A stretch of 33,384 nt of DNA from Desulfurococcales archaeon (GTDB taxonomy: Archaea > Thermoproteota > Thermoprotei_A > Sulfolobales > NBVN01), in assembly GCA_027083115.1 (NCBI GenBank), contig JALWQN010000162.1:1-33384 (forward strand), in the 5' to 3' direction. This document shows positions 1 through 33,384 of the stretch, one piece after another. The first letter of the stretch is position 1. Each line of letters begins with the position of its first letter. A program made the position numbers and the translations under genes. The notes beneath the pieces are model-generated. The model was not told the DNA's origin and made no database searches. It worked only from the letters and a program-made list of their open reading frames with translations.

Positions 1-120
1 CACACCAATATACTTAATCACCTGAACTATGCTTAAGCGCTTAACGGGCGGTGGACCTGACTCCTTACTTGCCTCGACCTTAGGCTCCTCCTTAACTTGT
101 TGAGTAACCTCCGCGCCCAC
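1..120 (-). CDS. Partial CDS running off the left edge (element gene, unknown function), GTG start at 120
   Basis: Open frame on the minus strand: GTG GGC GCG GAG GTT ACT CAA CAA GTT AAG GAG GAG CCT..., overlapping the 3' end of the upstream ORF in a different frame. Confidence 0.45.
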   Translation of the reverse strand, partial: MGAEVTQQVKEEPKVEASKESGPPPVKRLSIVQVIKYIGV

Positions 121-472
121 GGTCTATCACCTCCTTAACTTCTTTAAGAAAGTCAGGCGAGCTGAGAGCTAACTTAATGAGCTCATGCTTGACGACATAT
201 TTCCTAGGGCGCGCTCTCTTAGAGATCCAGACAAGCCCCGCCCTAGCTAGCTGGTTCAGCAACCAACCAAATTCAGTTTTGGCTCCCACGGAGCTGAGGC
301 CATATGCTTCAAGGTCCCTGACCCTAATCGTGGTTTGTTTATTCCATGGTGCTCGCGCGACCCTCTCAAGGATCATTTTTCTAAGTACCTGAAGAAGAAA
401 GGATTCATCAAGGAGGATGGATTCATCAGAAAAAACCAGCCTTTTCGGTTTGGGGGTTGTTATTTCTGTCAT
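92..472 (-). CDS. Small probable winged-helix protein of the left integrated element
   Basis: ORF of 126 aa; pattern 'RVRDLEAYGLSSVGAKTEFGWLLNQLARAGLVWISKRARPRKYVV' resembles wHTH; tightly packed with neighbouring minus-strand ORFs. Confidence 0.55.
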   Translation of the reverse strand: MTEITTPKPKRLVFSDESILLDESFLLQVLRKMILERVARAPWNKQTTIRVRDLEAYGLSSVGAKTEFGWLLNQLARAGLVWISKRARPRKYVVKHELIKLALSSPDFLKEVKEVIDRGRGGYSTS

Positions 473-483
473 TTCGTTCGCCC

Positions 484-765
484 CTAGAACCCAAGAAGGT
501 CATATAGGTCTTCAGAATCGCCTTCATTCTCAGGCTCGTTAAAGTGATGGCGCTCAACTCTACTTAATGCGTCATGAAGGAGCCGAGCGTAACCCACGTT
601 AACCCTATGGACACCTACCAATTCGATCAGGTTCTTGCGGGTTGCCCAACCAACCAATTTAGTGGCTGTGAAGCCCGGTCTTAACTTAACGATAATTATG
701 TATGACGGCCATAAGGTGGCGTCAATCTGATCGCTCGTTTTCTGTGTTGCTGCTTGCGTGGTCAT
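484..765 (-). CDS. Hypothetical protein (93 aa) of the left element
   Basis: Co-directional, closely spaced with flanking element ORFs. Confidence 0.55.
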   Translation of the reverse strand: MTTQAATQKTSDQIDATLWPSYIIIVKLRPGFTATKLVGWATRKNLIELVGVHRVNVGYARLLHDALSRVERHHFNEPENEGDSEDLYDLLGF

Positions 766-774
766 TCCTCACCG

Positions 775-1065
775 TCACCCGAACAGTGATTCTACGCCTG
801 CCTCAACTGCCTCATCAGCCCCTTCATCCGCGGCCTGATCGCTCGTGAGCTTAGGCTCGACATCAATTACTTCATATGGTGGTAGGTTCTTGTCAAGGTA
901 GGCGGTCACTATTTCAGAGATCAGTTTCTCGGCCGTCGGCTTTATTTCTGAATACCATGCGTCATCAGGCACCAGTGGCTTCAGAATGACCACAATCTCT
1001 TTTATTTTATTGATGTATGGTTCGATTTCCGTTAGGCGGACCTGGTTAGACTTAGACCTATTCAT
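775..1065 (-). CDS. Element-conserved hypothetical protein (96 aa), paralogue of the ORF at 33125..33379
   Basis: 'VRLTEIEPYINKIKEIVVILKPLVPDDAWYSEIKPTAEKLISEIVTAYLDKNLPPYEVID' aligns with 'VRLKELEPILNEIKRAILKVKPLITKEEWESNVRPTAEQLLGGIVSAYLDAHLPSYEIME' of the right element. Confidence 0.75.
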   Translation of the reverse strand: MNRSKSNQVRLTEIEPYINKIKEIVVILKPLVPDDAWYSEIKPTAEKLISEIVTAYLDKNLPPYEVIDVEPKLTSDQAADEGADEAVEAGVESLFG

Positions 1066-1076
1066 TTTGTTTCACC

Positions 1077-1126
1077 ACTAGTTACTAGTTTCAGAATTAA
1101 TAAATATTTCTCACTAGTTACTAGTG
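1077..1126. promoter_or_regulatory. Tandem palindromic operator candidate (two copies of ACTAGTTACTAGT) in the divergent promoter region
   Basis: ACTAGTTACTAGT at 1077-1089 and CACTAGTTACTAGTG at 1112-1126, between divergent ORFs 775..1065(-) and 1176..1406(+). Confidence 0.7.
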
Positions 1127-1175
1127 TTATAGAGTTTTTTAAACTAGAAGAAAAGAATATAGTAGGTAAGTTAAA

Positions 1176-1406
1176 ATGGCGGGGAAACGAATTATTAAGA
1201 CCGTGCGCGTCACTAAGAAGCGGGCGGCCTACGTTTATAAGCCGAGCGGTAAGGTCACCATATCCGAGAGTTATTCGGTCTCGATCCCTAAGCCAATAGC
1301 TGAGGAATACGGTATTAAGGGGGGAGAAACACTTAACGTTACTGTCGCGGAAGTCAATATCGAGGGAAGAAAGGTTAAGGCCATCATCTACTATAGGCCT
1401 TCCTAA
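1176..1406 (+). CDS. AbrB/SpoVT-AbrB-like DNA-binding regulator (left element)
   Basis: 76 aa, 'SYSVSIPKPIAEEYGIKGGETLNVTVAEVNIEGRKVKAIIYYRPS' swapped-hairpin pattern; paralogous to 32787..33008. Confidence 0.75.
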   Translation: MAGKRIIKTVRVTKKRAAYVYKPSGKVTISESYSVSIPKPIAEEYGIKGGETLNVTVAEVNIEGRKVKAIIYYRPS

Positions 1407-1478
1407 GAGTTTTTGAATCCTGGAGCGATATTTTTCTCGATCAGTCCCAACCAACCTATCATTCACCTCTTTCTTTCT

Positions 1479-2648
1479 TTATTTTCTTCTCACACCCCTC
1501 AGGACCTCGAATAGCACGAGGAAGACTTCAGGAGCAAAAACCGCGATTATTATTAGGCCCGCAAGCAGTGTAAGGAACCAGGTGAATGGATTAGTGAGGA
1601 CGTTATGCACTAAGTTATTTACTGTGTCAGTAAGCCATCCTCCGAGCGGGTTCGGTGTCCTGTTGTAGTGCTCGGGCAGTTGCTGAATGTCCTTAACAAT
1701 CCACTCACCAACCACGAATGTGTGGACGTCAAAACCGTAGGTTATTATGTCTCCCTGGACCTTCGGAGGTATTGCTAGGCCGTTAACGTTCGCCCCAAAA
1801 TTAAATAATGAAATATGCACGTATGCTTCCTTCCTGAAGACTTCGGGATTAAGTATTGCGCCCTTATACCGAAGTATTTGCTTCTCCCCCTCGAACTTCT
1901 GTCCGCCCTCAATAGGTAGGTTAGTGTAGAGCGCCAGTATGGAGTTAGTTGATTCAGGATACACATCAACACTCGAGGGATCCATTGAAGTAACCTTAAT
2001 GTTGGTAAGAATTACCTTAGCAATCCCGAAATAAACGTTAGTCGCATTATTGAAGTACCACATATTATTCATGCTTATCTTGAACCACACTTCAGTATTG
2101 TGGTACCTCACTGGATTAAGGGAGAAAACGCCAAGAGTATAATATTCGGCATTACTGTCGCCACCATACTCTATGCTGACGAACCATTTGAGGACCCACT
2201 CCTCCATAACGTACTGATGGATTCTTCCATTACTGTCGTTAACCCTCCATTCATAGGTTCTTATCGGGTTCTTCATGTACTGAAGACCATTAACCCATTC
2301 CTTAGGCACCCAATCAGGCACGCTAAGTAGATTGCTTGATGAAGGCACAAAAATCGAGGTCATTTCGCCCTCTAAATTACCCATGCCATCACTAGGGCCG
2401 TCAGGATCGAAAGCTAATGAAGTATCGAACCTACATAAGGAACCCCCGTGGCAGTCACCCTGAGTATACCATTGATTATTGTAGTATACTGCAGCAAACG
2501 AGGGCTTAGGCCCCTGATAAGTTGTAGGCATAAATGAAAGAGGCAGGCCCCCGAGGCCCGCCAACACTACCGCAGCAACTGCAGCAATAACGATAACCTT
2601 AATGAGGCTTTGATTTTGCATCATCAACACCCTCCAGAACCTTAACAA
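1479..2648 (-). CDS. Large membrane-anchored secreted protein of the left element (N-terminal signal/TM, ectodomain of about 330 aa, C-terminal TM and basic tail)
   Basis: N-terminal 'SLIKVIVIAAVAAVVLAGLGGLPLSF' and C-terminal 'WFLTLLAGLIIIAVFAPEVFLVLFEVLRGVRRK'; likely true start is an internal Met (MMQNQSLIK), just inside the 3' end of the upstream ORF. Confidence 0.7.
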   Translation of the reverse strand: MLRFWRVLMMQNQSLIKVIVIAAVAAVVLAGLGGLPLSFMPTTYQGPKPSFAAVYYNNQWYTQGDCHGGSLCRFDTSLAFDPDGPSDGMGNLEGEMTSIFVPSSSNLLSVPDWVPKEWVNGLQYMKNPIRTYEWRVNDSNGRIHQYVMEEWVLKWFVSIEYGGDSNAEYYTLGVFSLNPVRYHNTEVWFKISMNNMWYFNNATNVYFGIAKVILTNIKVTSMDPSSVDVYPESTNSILALYTNLPIEGGQKFEGEKQILRYKGAILNPEVFRKEAYVHISLFNFGANVNGLAIPPKVQGDIITYGFDVHTFVVGEWIVKDIQQLPEHYNRTPNPLGGWLTDTVNNLVHNVLTNPFTWFLTLLAGLIIIAVFAPEVFLVLFEVLRGVRRK

Positions 2649-2890: not shown

Positions 2891-3025
2891 TTAGTCCCAC
2901 CAGTGTTTTCTTTCTTTCTGCCTCCATAGTTGGGGTACTGTCTTCCTCTTATTCCTTATATATATTATTAGCATAATCAGTAAGGCAGCAATAACTATTA
3001 TGGCCGTGATTACCTTATCGCTCAT
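2891..3025 (-). CDS. 44-aa single-pass membrane miniprotein, translationally coupled to the integrase gene
   Basis: MSDKVITAIIVIAALLIMLIIYIRNKRKTVPQLWRQKERKHWWD*; its ATG overlaps the integrase TGA (ATGA). Not in the supplied ORF list because of the length cutoff. Confidence 0.55.
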   Translation of the reverse strand: MSDKVITAIIVIAALLIMLIIYIRNKRKTVPQLWRQKERKHWWD

Positions 3026-3768
3026 TCCTTCATCCACCCCCTCAACCAATCAATATATTTTGGGTACTGCTGTAGCGCTAGAGCATATAGGTTTAGGTAG
3101 TGTTTGCTTAGTATGCTTCGGGGGGTCCTGCCCTGCATGAAGTCAATCACCTCGGAGGGGATACCGAGTGAAGCCATTCTTGTAGCCACCCACTTCCTGA
3201 TGTACTTAGGCCTAACGATATCGTGTATTCTAGCAAGCCTTGACGCGTGGTCCTCACTTAACTTAATCCGCTTCAGGACCGAAGCATGGAATACGTAGAA
3301 GGACTTCTTGCTCTTAGTTATCTTACCTAAGTCATAGACGTAGAAACCGCCTGACTGCTGCTTATCCTTACTCACATCATAATTATTCAGCACCTGAAGG
3401 ACCTCAGTAAGCCTAGATCCTGACTCAATAAGCAACCTATACGTAAGGCATAATGCCTCAGAATAACCGCATGCTTCCCTAAGCGATTCCCTAACCTCAT
3501 CACTTGATGGGATGCTTAAGTCAATGCCTGACCGCCTGCCCTTAGGCAGTCCTGAAGGGTCCCACCCCCTAAACCTATAATATAGTCTGTATGCCTTAAT
3601 GCTGTGGTCATTACTCGGGTTAAGTGGCTTCCTGAGGTAGTTCGCCCTATCCCTACACGTCTGCTCCGTGTTCCCTAACTCATCAATGCACCAGTTATAG
3701 AACATTACAACCAGGTTTTCAGGGGGTATCTCGGCCTTTGGGTTGTAACTTCCTGCGTGAGGATTCAC
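3022..3768 (-). CDS. SSV-type archaeal tyrosine recombinase/integrase (left element)
   Basis: 'ESGSRLTEVL', 'KYIRKWVATRMASLGIPSEVIDFMQGRTPRSILSKHYLNLYALALQQYPKYIDWL' (R...H/K-x-x-R...Y arrangement). The reading frame stays open upstream of the GTG through the tRNA-Val 5' half. Confidence 0.85.
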   Translation of the reverse strand: MNPHAGSYNPKAEIPPENLVVMFYNWCIDELGNTEQTCRDRANYLRKPLNPSNDHSIKAYRLYYRFRGWDPSGLPKGRRSGIDLSIPSSDEVRESLREACGYSEALCLTYRLLIESGSRLTEVLQVLNNYDVSKDKQQSGGFYVYDLGKITKSKKSFYVFHASVLKRIKLSEDHASRLARIHDIVRPKYIRKWVATRMASLGIPSEVIDFMQGRTPRSILSKHYLNLYALALQQYPKYIDWLRGWMKE

Positions 3769-3789
3769 GCGTGAACTTGAAGCGTGAGG
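3755..3789. repeat. Integrase att-region repeats: GCGTGAGG x2 flanking the palindrome TTCACGCGTGAA
   Basis: GCGTGAGG at 3755-3762 and 3782-3789; TTCACGCGTGAA at 3764-3775; GCGTGA therefore occurs at 3755, 3769 and 3782. Confidence 0.6.
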
Positions 3790-3821
3790 GCGGCGTCCTA
3801 ACCGGGCTAGACGACGGGCCC
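3782..3821 (-). tRNA. 5' half of tRNA-Val (anticodon CAC), positions 1-38 only, interrupted at the end of the anticodon loop
   Basis: Minus strand GGGCCCG TC GTCTAGCCCGGTTAGGAC G CCGCC CTCACGC, then non-tRNA TTCAAGTTCACGCGTGAATCC...; TATA-like TTAAAAA at 3844-3850, about 25-29 nt upstream. Confidence 0.8.
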
Positions 3822-3846
3822 CTAAATTGGTTTTTGAAGCCGGTTT

Positions 3847-4311
3847 TTAAGTGTTGGTTTGATTCCTCATGAATTTTTCCAGGTCCTTTATTAGGCCTAG
3901 GTCTGAAAGGACTCCCGGCAGTCCTGGGGCCCCCTCTATTTGTTCCTTAGTTACTCTGTATCTTCCTGCTTTTGTCTGTGTGAGTTCTTCTGCCTTAATG
4001 AATTTCCACCCTTTCCTAGGGATTTTCACGGCTATGTAGCTTATTCCTCCTGCTCTTTCCGCAAACGTCCTCAGCTTCTTTATTTGCTCGTTCTCCAAGT
4101 ATATTGGGCCGGTCTTCTTCCTTGATTTGACCTCGAACACGGCTACTTTGCCGTTCTTTATCGCGACAATGTCTGGGTAGTCTGCCTTCCTTATTTTTGC
4201 CCCGCTTGCTGGTGCACGCATTACTGCGAAACCCAGCCTCCATAATGTGGTAACTAATTCTCTCTCTGCCCTGTAGCCTCTCTGCCTTGATCTCTTTCCT
4301 GAGGAACTCAA
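3847..4311 (-). CDS. hjc: Hjc-family Holliday junction resolvase
   Basis: 'RQRGYRAERELVTTLWRLGFAVMRAPASG...YPDIVAIKNGKVAVFEVKSRKK' nuclease core. Confidence 0.85.
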   Translation of the reverse strand: MSSSGKRSRQRGYRAERELVTTLWRLGFAVMRAPASGAKIRKADYPDIVAIKNGKVAVFEVKSRKKTGPIYLENEQIKKLRTFAERAGGISYIAVKIPRKGWKFIKAEELTQTKAGRYRVTKEQIEGAPGLPGVLSDLGLIKDLEKFMRNQTNT

Positions 4312-4419: not shown

Positions 4420-5214
4420 GTGAATATATTCGAGATTTCATTGCTGTTCATCATTATAGTTATTGTTCTCCCCATACTTGCGGCAGCAATCAAGATCGTT
4501 AAGGAGTACGAGAGGGCAGTGATATTTAGGTTAGGTAGGTTATTGGGTGCTAAGGGACCCGGCCTCTTCTTCATAATACCCTTCGTTGATTCGTTCATGA
4601 AGATAGACTTACGTGTAGTTACTGTTGACGTACCTAAGCAGGACATAATCACTAAGGATAATGTGAGCGTAAGCGTTGATGCCGTAGTTTACTATAGGGT
4701 TGTGGACCCGATCTCCGCGGTGATTAAGGTAGCTAACTACAACTACGCAATAACCATGCTTGGACAGACTGTTCTTAGGGATGTTGTGGGTCAGGCAGAG
4801 CTTGATGACTTGCTTCAGAGGAGAGAAGACATAAACAAGAAAATACAGTCAATTCTTGACGAAATAACGATGCCTTGGGGCATTAAGGTGGTTTCAGTAA
4901 CCATTAAGTCCGTTGAGTTACCTGAGAACATGACTAGAGCAATGGCTAAGCAGGCTGAGGCAGAGCGCTGGAGGAGAGCAAGGATTATTGAGGCTGAGGG
5001 TGAGAGGCAGGCAGCCGACAGGTTAGGTGAGGCAGCACTCGTGTACGAGAAGCATCCTGCCGCAATGAGGTTAAGGGAGCTCCAAACCTTAGTTGAGATA
5101 GCTAGGGAGAAGTCCTTAGTTGTCGTGACTGAGAAAGGATCCTCAATAATTGGTGAGACAGCGGCAGTAACTAAAGAAATAAGCGAGAAGATTAAGAAGG
5201 GCGGAGAAAGTTAA
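4420..5214 (+). CDS. Stomatin/prohibitin (SPFH) family protein
   Basis: 'EYERAVIFRLGRLLGAKGPGLFFIIPFVD...VVYYRVVDP...'; ORF open from 4357, GTG at 4420 is the more likely start. Confidence 0.9.
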   Translation: MNIFEISLLFIIIVIVLPILAAAIKIVKEYERAVIFRLGRLLGAKGPGLFFIIPFVDSFMKIDLRVVTVDVPKQDIITKDNVSVSVDAVVYYRVVDPISAVIKVANYNYAITMLGQTVLRDVVGQAELDDLLQRREDINKKIQSILDEITMPWGIKVVSVTIKSVELPENMTRAMAKQAEAERWRRARIIEAEGERQAADRLGEAALVYEKHPAAMRLRELQTLVEIAREKSLVVVTEKGSSIIGETAAVTKEISEKIKKGGES

Positions 5215-30734: not shown

Positions 30735-30781
30735 TGGTGGGCCCGCGGGGATTCGAACCCCGGGCCTCCGCCGCGTCAGGG
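30735..30781 (-). tRNA. 3' half of tRNA-Val (anticodon loop CTGACGC, GAC) with encoded CCA; attachment-site fragment
   Basis: Minus strand CCCTGACGC GGCGG AGGCC CGGGG TTCGAAT CCCCG CGGGCCC A CCA; no matching 5' half is present on the right side of the window. Confidence 0.85.
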
Positions 30782-30845
30782 TTACTTAACGCGTGATTCG
30801 GGGAGGAAAAGCAGGAATAAAGTTATCCAAGCACCATTAGTTTGT

Positions 30846-31649
30846 TTGGAGATAACTGAGGACCTCCTTAATGGATTCAGGGACTGGTTGCTTGGTGAGG
30901 GAGTGAGTGAGGGGACCGTAAAGAACTACTTAAGTCACTTAAGGAGTGTTGTGGGCCTAAGACTATGTGGTAAGGGTGACGTTAGTAAGGTTTTCGAGGG
31001 TATGGGTGGGGTGAATGATAAGACGCGTAAGGCATTCAGCAGGCTCCTGACTTATGTGGAGAGGAAGGTTGACGGGTATGATGAGCTAGTGATTAAGTTG
31101 AGGAAGGCCTTACCTAAGAGGCCTAAGTCAAGGGAAGACACTTACGTGCCTCCCGACTCACTAATTAAGGCAGTTGGTGAGGGGGTTAAGGAATTAGGCC
31201 CCCCATACGTTATGCTCTATAACGTGCTGGTATCCACGGGCTGCCGAGGTACTGAAGCCATATACCTTATTAATAATATAGGTAGGTTGAAAGCTGTTGA
31301 CTTAGGTCCTTACGTTAGGGTGCATGTCGACCTCCAGAGGGGAAGCAAGAACGAGTTCGTCATGTACCTACCGAAGGAAGTATATCAGCAGCTCAAGGAA
31401 TTCAGGCAGGGACTACCTCATGAGGACACTTTAGGGAAGGGCCTCAAGGAAGCGGGCCTAAGCATAAAGTACTTCAGGAAGTGGTGGCGTCAAACCCTCA
31501 AGAAGCTAGGCATAGATAGCGAGGATATTGAGGCATTCCAGGGTAGGGTAACAACTATTGGCGGGAGACACTATACTGACTGGATACCATTACTAGATAA
31601 TGATTACGGGAGAGTGCTCCCACACATAAAGAAATACCTGGTGTTTTAG
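30846..31649 (+). CDS. Archaeal tyrosine recombinase/integrase (right element, different subgroup from the left one)
   Basis: 'VLVSTGCRGTEAIYL', 'KYFRKWWRQTLKKLGIDSEDIEAFQGRVTTIGGRHYTDWIPLLDNDYGRVLPHIKKYL'; TTG start; adjacent to the tRNA-Val fragment. Confidence 0.85.
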   Translation: MEITEDLLNGFRDWLLGEGVSEGTVKNYLSHLRSVVGLRLCGKGDVSKVFEGMGGVNDKTRKAFSRLLTYVERKVDGYDELVIKLRKALPKRPKSREDTYVPPDSLIKAVGEGVKELGPPYVMLYNVLVSTGCRGTEAIYLINNIGRLKAVDLGPYVRVHVDLQRGSKNEFVMYLPKEVYQQLKEFRQGLPHEDTLGKGLKEAGLSIKYFRKWWRQTLKKLGIDSEDIEAFQGRVTTIGGRHYTDWIPLLDNDYGRVLPHIKKYLVF

Positions 31650-32408
31650 GTCCTGCAGAAATGGCCCTCCTTTAAAGCCATAAGTAAATCCATGAATTTT
31701 TTGAAATCCTCCCTAAAGTTAGGATTGTATTCTCTAAGTATTGACTCTATCAGATCGTCTGAAGGTAAGAACTTACTCGCTTCCGATAATTTCTCACTTA
31801 TTTGGAGTCCTTCGCTCCTTAAGTATTCCCTGCACTTAGGGAGTTTTTCAATCATGTCTTTGTACGGGCGATAAACACTCATTAAGAGGTAGGGAGCCAC
31901 ATCCTTCTCTACCTCTTCATCCAAATGTGCTTCAGCCAATGCAACAACAACTAAAGTTAATAGCTTCTCGTAAGCGAAGGTTGTCATTCTACAGTAATCC
32001 TCACTCTGAAATAGGTTCATAACTTCGCTTATGTTGAAGTTAGGGGCATATCTCTTAAGAAGGAAAGCACTCTTTCTTAAGACCTCTATGGTTTCGTTAA
32101 TCCCTCCCCAACTCTTGTTTAATTCACCTAATGACTTAGCTGCCAAAAGAATAACTCCCAAACAAGTTGGTTTGTTTAGGGTTCTTTTCCTGCTTTCTTC
32201 ACCCACCACTTTCCTCATAATAAACCCATATTTCTGGAGCTTAGGTAGGACCTTCTTGAAGAACCTAGTCCTATCTCTAAAGGCCCCCTCCTCATATACT
32301 GCGTCAAATAATTTGTTAGCAGTAACCCCTTCAGGCATATTTTTGGTTAAGCTGTAAAGGATTTCTAGGACACGGAGCTCTTTATTATCCAACACCACCT
32401 TAATCACC
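31646..32408 (-). CDS. Element protein with N-terminal winged-helix-like region and helical C-terminus, unknown function
   Basis: ORF listed to 32503, but the repeat array at 32414-32439 suggests the start is the GTG near 32408 (VIKVVLDNKELRVLEILYSLTKNMPEGVTANKLFDAVYEEGAFRDRTRFFKKVLPKLQKYGFIMRKV). Confidence 0.6.
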
Positions 32409-32413
32409 AACCA

Positions 32414-32439
32414 GTATTGAATATCAATACCAGTATTGA
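32414..32439. promoter_or_regulatory. Operator candidate: GTATTGA-ATA-TCAATAC plus a third half-site GTATTGA
   Basis: GTATTGA at 32414 and 32433 (19 bp period) with inverted TCAATAC at 32424-32430; between divergent genes; TATA-like TTTATAAATA at about 32456. Confidence 0.55.
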
Positions 32440-32488
32440 TATATCCTACTACTACTTTATAAATATTTATGCTGAGGTAGGAAAGGGT

Positions 32489-32697
32489 ATGATAAAACGT
32501 CACTCGAGGTAATCGCTACTTTCAAGGTTGGGCCTAGAAAGATTACGCGCGTCGGCGGGACCCCAGCAGTTTACTTACCGCGGGAATTCCTGCAATATAG
32601 GGGCATGAAGGCCCTAATTACCATAGAAATTCTGAACGAAACAGAAAGCGACCCACAGAATGAGAATGAGGAGAGGAATGTGAAGGTAATCATGTGA
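32489..32697 (+). pseudogene. AbrB/SpoVT-like regulator 2 of the right element, apparently frame-broken by -1 in ATGATAAAACG (or needing frameshift or non-canonical start)
   Basis: Open frame ...EVIATFKVGPRKITRVGGTPAVYLPREFLQYRGMKALITIEILNETESDPQNENEERNVKVIM* has no ATG/GTG/TTG start; the promoter-proximal ATG (32489) joins it only if one extra A is read in the A4 run. Confidence 0.6.
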
Positions 32698-32786
32698 TGC
32701 CAGAATAAAAGAATTTATTCAAAAAGGAGGGGAGTAAGTTGGTGGTTCAAGAACATAACTACTTCATGCCTCAAAAACACTACCTA

Positions 32787-33008
32787 TTAAGGTTTATAGA
32801 AGAAAACTCCTTTAACTCTCTTGCCGTCAACTTCAGCCTCAAGCAGTTTGGCGAGGATAGGATCTCCTGGATTTATTCGGAGCTCTTCAGCAAGGGCTTT
32901 AGGTATGGTTACGGCTATGGAGAAGCTCTCACCTGCTCCCTTCTTCTTTGTGGCCGTAACATGGTAGAGTGGCTTAAGCTTCCTTCCCTTAGATCTTTCT
33001 TCAGGCAT
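32787..33008 (-). CDS. AbrB/SpoVT-like regulator (right element)
   Basis: 'ATKKKGAGESFSIAVTIPKALAEELRINPGDPILAKLLEAEVDGKRVKGVFFYKP', paralogue of 1176..1406. Confidence 0.75.
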   Translation of the reverse strand: MPEERSKGRKLKPLYHVTATKKKGAGESFSIAVTIPKALAEELRINPGDPILAKLLEAEVDGKRVKGVFFYKP

Positions 33009-33022
33009 AAAGCACTCCCAAT

Positions 33023-33116
33023 ACTAATAGTGCTATTTAGAATAAAAAACACTAGTAGCACTATTAGTATTATTAGGCAAACATTTATTAACTATGTAAC
33101 TAATAGCACTATTGGT
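33023..33116. promoter_or_regulatory. Three-copy palindromic operator array, consensus ACTAATAG-NN-CTATTAGT
   Basis: ACTAATAGTGCTATTTAG (33023-33040), ACTAGTAGCACTATTAGT (33051-33068), ACTAATAGCACTATTGGT (33099-33116). Confidence 0.75.
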
Positions 33117-33124
33117 GAAATAAA

Positions 33125-33379
33125 ATGAGTGGAATAGTTCGCCTGAAGGAGTTGGAGCCTATTCTGAATGAGATTAAGAGGGCTATCCTCAAAGTCAAAC
33201 CACTAATAACTAAAGAGGAATGGGAATCGAATGTTAGGCCTACTGCAGAGCAGCTTCTAGGTGGAATTGTGAGTGCATATCTTGACGCCCACTTACCTAG
33301 TTACGAAATAATGGAGACTCTCGCAACTGAGGAAGCACAGAGAGAAATCTCCATGAACGAGGAGGAGAGAGATGAGTAA
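33125..33379 (+). CDS. Element-conserved hypothetical protein (84 aa), paralogue of 775..1065
   Basis: Alignment given for 775..1065; a following ORF begins at the overlapping ATG 33372 and runs off the window. Confidence 0.75.
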   Translation: MSGIVRLKELEPILNEIKRAILKVKPLITKEEWESNVRPTAEQLLGGIVSAYLDAHLPSYEIMETLATEEAQREISMNEEERDE

Positions 33380-33384
33380 GGCAT

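What the first reader, a model, noticed from the sequence alone, without database searches (positions are those of the whole stretch)
3755..3850. tRNA-Val(CAC) gene cut at the anticodon loop, with native promoter but no 3' half adjacent
The minus strand shows a well-formed tRNA-Val 5' half (acceptor, D-arm, anticodon stem 5' strand, full loop CTCACGC) with a TATA-like box at the right distance, then element DNA. In the usual archaeal tRNA integration the attP supplies a 3' half, so the tRNA is intact at the promoter side. Here it is not. Either the element uses a reversed (5'-half) attP, or the tRNA is really disrupted, or it is expressed as a split half. The integrase frame also stays open through the tRNA half.
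Basis: partly seen in the sequence, partly recalled or inferred. Interest (0 to 1): 0.75.

Follow-up and report, generated by a model that had tools for sequence, protein, structure and literature searches.

The report
Virus-type element spliced into tRNA's front half
A spindle-virus-type mobile element sits in the middle of an archaeal valine tRNA gene in the opposite sense to nearly all its relatives, leaving the original front half and promoter stranded beside a cut integrase gene; most likely the element carries its own replacement front half (as known for Thermococcus plasmid pTN3), but its far end is missing, so a truly broken tRNA is not excluded.

Summary
Window 3782-3821 (-) is a 40-nt tRNA-Val(CAC) 5' half with its promoter, ending exactly at the end of the anticodon loop. 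Synteny (stomatin gene, hjc, tRNA-Val) in eight relatives shows it is the host locus; G002, same genus, has the intact tRNA there. What abuts it is an SSV/fusellovirus-type integrase lacking its N-terminal ~115 residues, i.e. int(C), the mark of 'suicidal' integration. A second element at the window's right end is an ordinary SSV-type attR with a tRNA-Val(GAC) 3' half. The two junctions are in the same register (7-nt loop, then ACGCGTGA 9 nt on), so the left one looks integrase-made. Its polarity is unusual: 30 of 31 related int(C) loci have an antisense 3' half there; none has a sense 5' half. Best reading: a 5'-half attP, as in Thermococcus pTN3/TKV4, used by an SSV-family enzyme, the tRNA being rebuilt at the unseen end. 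The overlap matches a sense attP 6-7/7 and the reversed alternative 0-1/7, and tRNA-Val(CAC) is kept in all 12 relatives >=92% complete. A real disruption by reversed integration remains possible. A working split tRNA is unsupported: no splice motif forms with either 3' half in the assembly.

The parts
3782..3821 (-). tRNA-Val(CAC) 5' half (acceptor strand to end of anticodon loop), host side of the integration junction
   Evidence: Identity to intact tRNA-Val(CAC) in G002; synteny with hjc in relatives
3782..3788 (-). 7-nt anticodon loop CTCACGC = inferred crossover overlap
   Evidence: Same register as the second element's junction
3844..3852 (-). TATA-like promoter box of the tRNA (ACTTAAAAA)
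   Evidence: Sequence and alignment with relatives
3762..3772 (-). ACGCGTGAATC, probable integrase-binding motif 9 nt after the overlap; ACGCGTGATTC at the same distance in element 2
   Evidence: function inferred
3022..3768 (-). int(C): C-terminal part of an SSV-type tyrosine integrase, catalytic domain intact, N-terminal ~115 residues missing
   Evidence: PF16795 E 2.6e-41; phrog_5127 profile 116-354 of 355; PDB SSV1 integrase 3uxu/3vcf/4dks E 4e-33
92..2648 (-). Element 1 genes of unknown function (389, 134, 96, 93 and 126 aa) and an opposing AbrB/MazE-like gene at 1176-1406 (+); contig ends inside the element
   Evidence: homologs in element 2
3847..4311 (-). Host hjc (Holliday junction resolvase) directly upstream of the tRNA
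   Evidence: PF01870 E 3e-32; synteny
4420..5214 (+). Host stomatin/SPFH gene, part of the conserved neighbourhood
   Evidence: PF01145; synteny
30739..30772 (-). tRNA-Val(GAC) 3' half, remnant of ordinary SSV-type integration of element 2 (comparison)
30846..31649 (+). Element 2 int(C), reading away from the 3' half (normal polarity; comparison)
   Evidence: PF16795 E 6e-18; phrog_5127 profile 117-353

Best explanation
The window's left end is one end of an integrated, fusellovirus-like element whose SSV-type integrase gene contains its own attachment site. Shown: the host tRNA-Val(CAC) is cut exactly at the end of the anticodon loop and followed, in the same reading direction, by int(C). Inferred: in the free element the int gene reads int(N) - tRNA-Val 5' half (sense) - loop - int(C). 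The integrase cut at the two edges of the 7-nt anticodon loop and exchanged strands; the host's promoter and 5' half were left beside int(C), and at the far end, outside this contig, the element's own 5' half was joined to the host's 3' half, rebuilding an intact tRNA-Val(CAC) expressed from the element's (int) promoter. This is the pTN3/TKV4 mode of integration, here carried out by a crenarchaeal SSV-family enzyme. The orphan tRNA promoter may now drive int(C) (inferred).
For: Host locus and cut point: synteny and intact homologs. Integrase-made junction: same register as element 2, overlap then ACGCGTGA 9 nt later. Partitioned integrase: only profile positions ~113-354 present. Polarity: int(C) in the direction of the tRNA after a sense 5' half, whereas 28 of 29 related int(C) loci of the order, plus elements 2 and 3 of this genome, have an antisense 3' half. 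Overlap homology: observed CTCACGC equals a sense attP 6-7/7 but the antisense form only 0-1/7. The tRNA is kept: intact tRNA-Val(CAC) in all 12 family genomes of >=92% completeness; both A37 and G37 loops occur naturally. Literature: pTN3-like integrases use the 5' half and rebuild the tRNA away from its original promoter; tRNA-Val(CAC) is among the most used archaeal sites (PMC8371274 section 18, PMC5495485).
Against: The other end, the int(N) and an intact tRNA-Val(CAC) are not in the 89%-complete assembly; the ordinary element 2's intact tRNA is missing too, so absence is uninformative. No SSV-family integrase with a 5'-half attP was seen in the sample of loci and free viruses, so the proposed attP has no direct relative. 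The open frame through the half is expected by chance about half the time.
Confidence: 0.55

Rival explanations
1. Reversed integration or later integrase-mediated inversion of an ordinary SSV-type element. The anticodon stem is a perfect inverted repeat (CCGCC/GGCGG), so the enzyme joined the wrong half. The tRNA-Val(CAC) is then really disrupted, and the far end is a palindrome, antisense 3' half - loop - 3' half.
For: Nearly all relatives have an antisense 3' half next to int(C), and element 2 has the same CCGCC arm there. An archaeal integrase related to SSV's can invert DNA between tRNA sites (PMC5495485). SSV5 and SSV6 show that the att segment of SSV int genes can flip. GUG could be read by tRNA-Val(UAC), which is intact at C149.
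Against: Needs strand exchange with 0-1 of 7 overlap bases matching. tRNA-Val(CAC) is kept in all 12 near-complete relatives.
Confidence: 0.25
2. A functional split tRNA: the 5' half is transcribed from its own promoter and trans-spliced to a 3' half elsewhere (C149:16249 or window 30739).
For: Native promoter kept; a 3' half with the matching loop CTCACGC exists at C149:16249-16282; the flank of this half and of the window's other 3' half are complementary (-30.8 kcal/mol against -17.7 +/- 3.5 for shuffles).
Against: Both flanks end in directly repeated, not complementary, loop sequence, so no bulge-helix-bulge forms; for C149 the duplex is no better than shuffles; the other complementarity is explained by the two int(C) genes being homologous and in opposite sense.
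Confidence: 0.04
3. An assembly chimera or a minority population structure rather than a chromosome arrangement.
For: Fragmented assembly, 163 contigs; no reads available.
Against: The join falls exactly on the integrase cut position and register; only 12 nt (CCGCCCTCACGC) could have been shared; the element side continues for 3.7 kb as a coherent element.
Confidence: 0.1

Closest known systems
pTN3/TKV4-like suicidal integration in Thermococcales (5'-half attB in tRNA-Leu)
   Same: Integrase gene partitioned at an attP inside it; tRNA 5' half and original promoter left next to int(C), int in the sense of the tRNA
   Different: Here the enzyme is SSV-family (crenarchaeal, fusellovirus-like) and the target is tRNA-Val(CAC); restoration at the far end not seen
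SSV-type integration of fuselloviruses (SSV1, SSV2, SSVRH, SSV5)
   Same: Integrase family, partition of int, crossover at the anticodon loop, catalytic domain
   Different: Those carry a tRNA 3' half (mostly antisense in int); here a sense 5' half abuts int(C)
Caldiarchaeum tRNA-Thr(GGU) fragment beside a mobile element (PMC3293823)
   Same: 5' fragment of a tRNA stranded beside a recombinase gene in a natural archaeal population
   Different: There the cut is at position 27, the element is pNOB8-like and the tRNA is rebuilt with an intron; here an SSV-type int(C) and an anticodon-loop cut
Recently split tRNAs of Desulfurococcales (PMC3218864)
   Same: Crenarchaeal tRNA separated into halves, mobile elements suspected
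   Different: Those have a splice motif; none is found here

Membership tests
SSV-type (suicidal) integrase element | Integrase of the SSV family | tested here: met
   PF16795, phrog_5127, PDB SSV1 integrase; tree places it with fuselloviral integrases, 99/99 support for that group of 21, on a long branch
SSV-type (suicidal) integrase element | int gene partitioned at the tRNA | tested here: met
   Only profile 113/116-354 of 355 present, starting at the tRNA junction
SSV-type (suicidal) integrase element | tRNA 3' half (usually antisense) next to int(C) | tested here: not met
   Sense 5' half instead
SSV-type (suicidal) integrase element | int(N) with intact tRNA at the other end | not testable with these tools
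   Contig ends inside the element; no overlapping contig
pTN3-like integration | Host promoter and 5' half left beside int(C), int in the sense of the tRNA | tested here: met
pTN3-like integration | tRNA rebuilt at the far end from an element-borne 5' half | not testable with these tools
   Far end absent from the assembly
pTN3-like integration | Integrase belongs to the pTN3 family | tested here: inconclusive
   Nearest relatives are fuselloviral (34-48%); the hit shown from a Thermococcus virus is 28%; pTN3 and TKV4 themselves were not compared
Split tRNA gene | Bulge-helix-bulge between the two halves | tested here: not met
   Neither 3' half in the genome can form it
Split tRNA gene | Joined mature tRNA | not testable with these tools
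   Needs RNA data

The most novel reading that the evidence does not exclude
An SSV-type element inserted backwards through the symmetric anticodon stem and really cut tRNA-Val(CAC), leaving a promoter-bearing 5' half whose flank is complementary to the flank of another valine 3' half left by a related element: a natural first step toward a split tRNA gene.
Probability: 0.15. Interest if true: 0.75.

Novelty: new variant of a known kind. Interest (0 to 1): 0.45.

Why it matters
The 5'-half mode was described as unique to pTN3-like integrases (PMC8371274). Finding its geometry with a crenarchaeal SSV-family integrase would show that this polarity can arise more than once, probably because the anticodon stem is symmetric, and gives a concrete locus for testing how mobile elements fragment tRNA genes. 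If the tRNA is truly broken, it is a fresh example of the proposed route to split tRNAs.

Tried and rejected
Trans-splicing with C149 or window 30739 halves: no splice motif. C149:16249 as the far end of element 1: its upstream DNA is a toxin-antitoxin pair and tRNA-Val(TAC), not int(N). C106:14440 int(N)-like remnant as the far end: the upstream genes look like host genes, not this element. DUF1177 as the host gene once downstream of the tRNA: not near any relative's hjc-tRNA-Val. SSV5/SSV6-like flipped att segment: would put a 3' half between 5' half and int(C), not seen. Contigs overlapping window base 1: none. Viral-contig scans never worked; the search machine gave no answer. A first 3'-half pattern was mis-spaced and a family-wide 5'-half pattern as well; both were redone.

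Full report
Observation. Reading the minus strand from 3852 down: a TATA-like ACTTAAAAA (3844-3852), then at 3821 GGGCCCGTCGTCTAGCCCGGTTAGGACGCCGCC-CTCACGC ending at 3782, then TTCAAGTTCACGCGTGAATCC and an integrase gene. 43 nt (the tRNA as far as CTCAC plus 5 nt of leader) match an intact tRNA-Val(CAC) in a congener at 100%. No 3' half follows.

It is the host's tRNA locus. The window lies in a fragmented genome (163 contigs, 89% complete). The gene order stomatin, hjc, tRNA-Val is kept in eight other genomes of the family that I could place (L059, L073-L078, L082; a ninth, L098, by hjc alone), with anticodon GAC or CAC; in G002 and G030 it is CAC and intact. The A/T-rich box upstream recurs in most of the five aligned. 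So the right side is chromosome and the left side is the insert.

What is inserted. The abutting gene is an SSV-type tyrosine integrase (PF16795, 2.6e-41; phrog_5127, 1e-76), but only from profile position 113/116 on; about 115 N-terminal residues are missing. The catalytic domain aligns with the solved SSV1 integrase and keeps the arginines and the tyrosine by eye. A gene cut in this way at a tRNA is the mark of SSV-type, 'suicidal' integration (PMC8371274). The element's other genes have no known family apart from an AbrB/MazE-like one; several have homologs in a second element at the window's right end.

The second element is the built-in control. At 30739-30772 (-) lies a tRNA-Val(GAC) 3' half, and int(C) of a distant relative (30846-31649) reads away from it. 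In the reading direction of int the junction is CCGCC-GCGTCAG-GGTTACTTA-ACGCGTGATTC; in element 1 it is CCGCC-CTCACGC-TTCAAGTTC-ACGCGTGAATC. Stem arm, 7-nt overlap and the 11-nt motif are in the same register, so the left junction looks integrase-made. The difference is the tRNA half: antisense 3' half in element 2, sense 5' half in element 1.

How unusual. Related int(C) genes were found in 36 of 216 genomes of the order. Of 29 loci read, 28 have an antisense T-arm just before int(C) and one (L127) has no recognisable half; elements 2 and 3 of this genome are also antisense. Among free viruses and plasmids read, twelve are antisense, SSV5 and SSV6 carry a sense 3' half, and SMF1 has no recognisable half. 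int(N) fragments found near tRNAs in these loci all lie antisense, downstream of the tRNA. The screen was a T-arm motif plus reading the sequences, not a model of 5' halves. Element 1 alone shows a sense 5' half before int(C).

Mechanism. A review states that pTN3-like integrases are unique in archaea in using the 5' half, and that the tRNA they rebuild is expressed from the integrase promoter (PMC8371274 section 18; PMC5495485). That geometry, host promoter plus 5' half left next to int(C), is what is seen here. Two points favour it over a reversed insertion of an ordinary element. First, tyrosine recombinases exchange strands in a short identical overlap (established knowledge; PMC8371274): CTCACGC matches the sense loop 6-7/7 and the antisense loop 0-1/7. 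Second, tRNA-Val(CAC) is intact in all 12 relatives of at least 92% completeness; both A37 and G37 loops occur in intact genes, so the G37 here is not damage. Against: the attP itself and the far end were not seen. Absence of an intact copy in the assembly means little, since element 2's intact tRNA-Val(GAC) is missing as well.

Rivals. Reversed integration or inversion through the symmetric anticodon stem would truly break the tRNA; an SSV-related integrase is known to invert DNA between tRNA sites (PMC5495485). GUG codons could then be read by tRNA-Val(UAC), intact at C149 (the wobble reading is general knowledge). A split tRNA is unlikely: the flanks of the halves end in direct repeats of the loop and cannot form the splice motif; the strong duplex with the window's own 3' half (-30.8 kcal/mol) follows from the two homologous int(C) genes lying in opposite sense. 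A 3' half with loop CTCACGC at C149:16249 is not the far end of this element, because no int(N) precedes it.

The tree of int(C) places element 1 with fuselloviral integrases (99/99 for a group of 21 rows) on a long branch, so this is a polarity change within that family or an old separate line of it, not a Thermococcus-type enzyme as far as tested; pTN3 itself was not in the comparison.

Precedents for fragments. A tRNA-Thr 5' fragment beside a recombinase was found in a Caldiarchaeum population and proposed as a route to split tRNAs (PMC3293823); recently split tRNAs are known in Desulfurococcales (PMC3218864). Verdict: real, integrase-made, unusual in polarity, probably harmless to the tRNA; the far end decides.

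Noticed in passing
window 30739-33384: Second SSV-type element, integrated normally in tRNA-Val(GAC): antisense 3' half plus int(C), with homologs of element 1's 96-aa and AbrB/MazE-like genes.
   Followed up: yes
L047 (G000:C149:16249-16282): A tRNA-Val 3' half with loop CTCACGC 0.8 kb downstream of intact tRNA-Val(TAC), after an antitoxin/PemK pair and before a DUF1177 gene; not explained, perhaps an old attR.
   Followed up: partly
L110 (G000:C150:5101-5898) and L050 (G000:C127:1-63): Third SSV-type int(C) with a tRNA-Ala(TGC) 3' half; the matching tRNA-Ala(TGC) is cut by a contig edge at C127.
   Followed up: partly
L146 (SSV5) and L161 (SSV6): The tRNA att segment inside their int genes is in sense orientation, inverted relative to close relatives such as SSV11 (L158).
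   Followed up: partly
L112, L114, L155 (G000:C125, C56, C98), L154 (G002:C48): int(N) remnants antisense at the 3' ends of tRNA-Ala(GGC), tRNA-Asn, tRNA-Ala(CGC) and tRNA-Phe: traces of repeated SSV-type integration in this genus.
   Followed up: partly
window 3742-3781: In element 1 the frame PPSRFKFTRESSRRKLQ resembles element 2's PPRQGYLTRDSGRKSRN, but int(C) continues in another frame; possible frameshift next to the att site.
   Followed up: no
hjc locus in family genomes (L059, L073-L078, L082): The same tRNA-Val locus carries anticodon GAC in most genera and CAC in others with nearly identical bodies; integration in the anticodon loop could have swapped anticodons.
   Followed up: no
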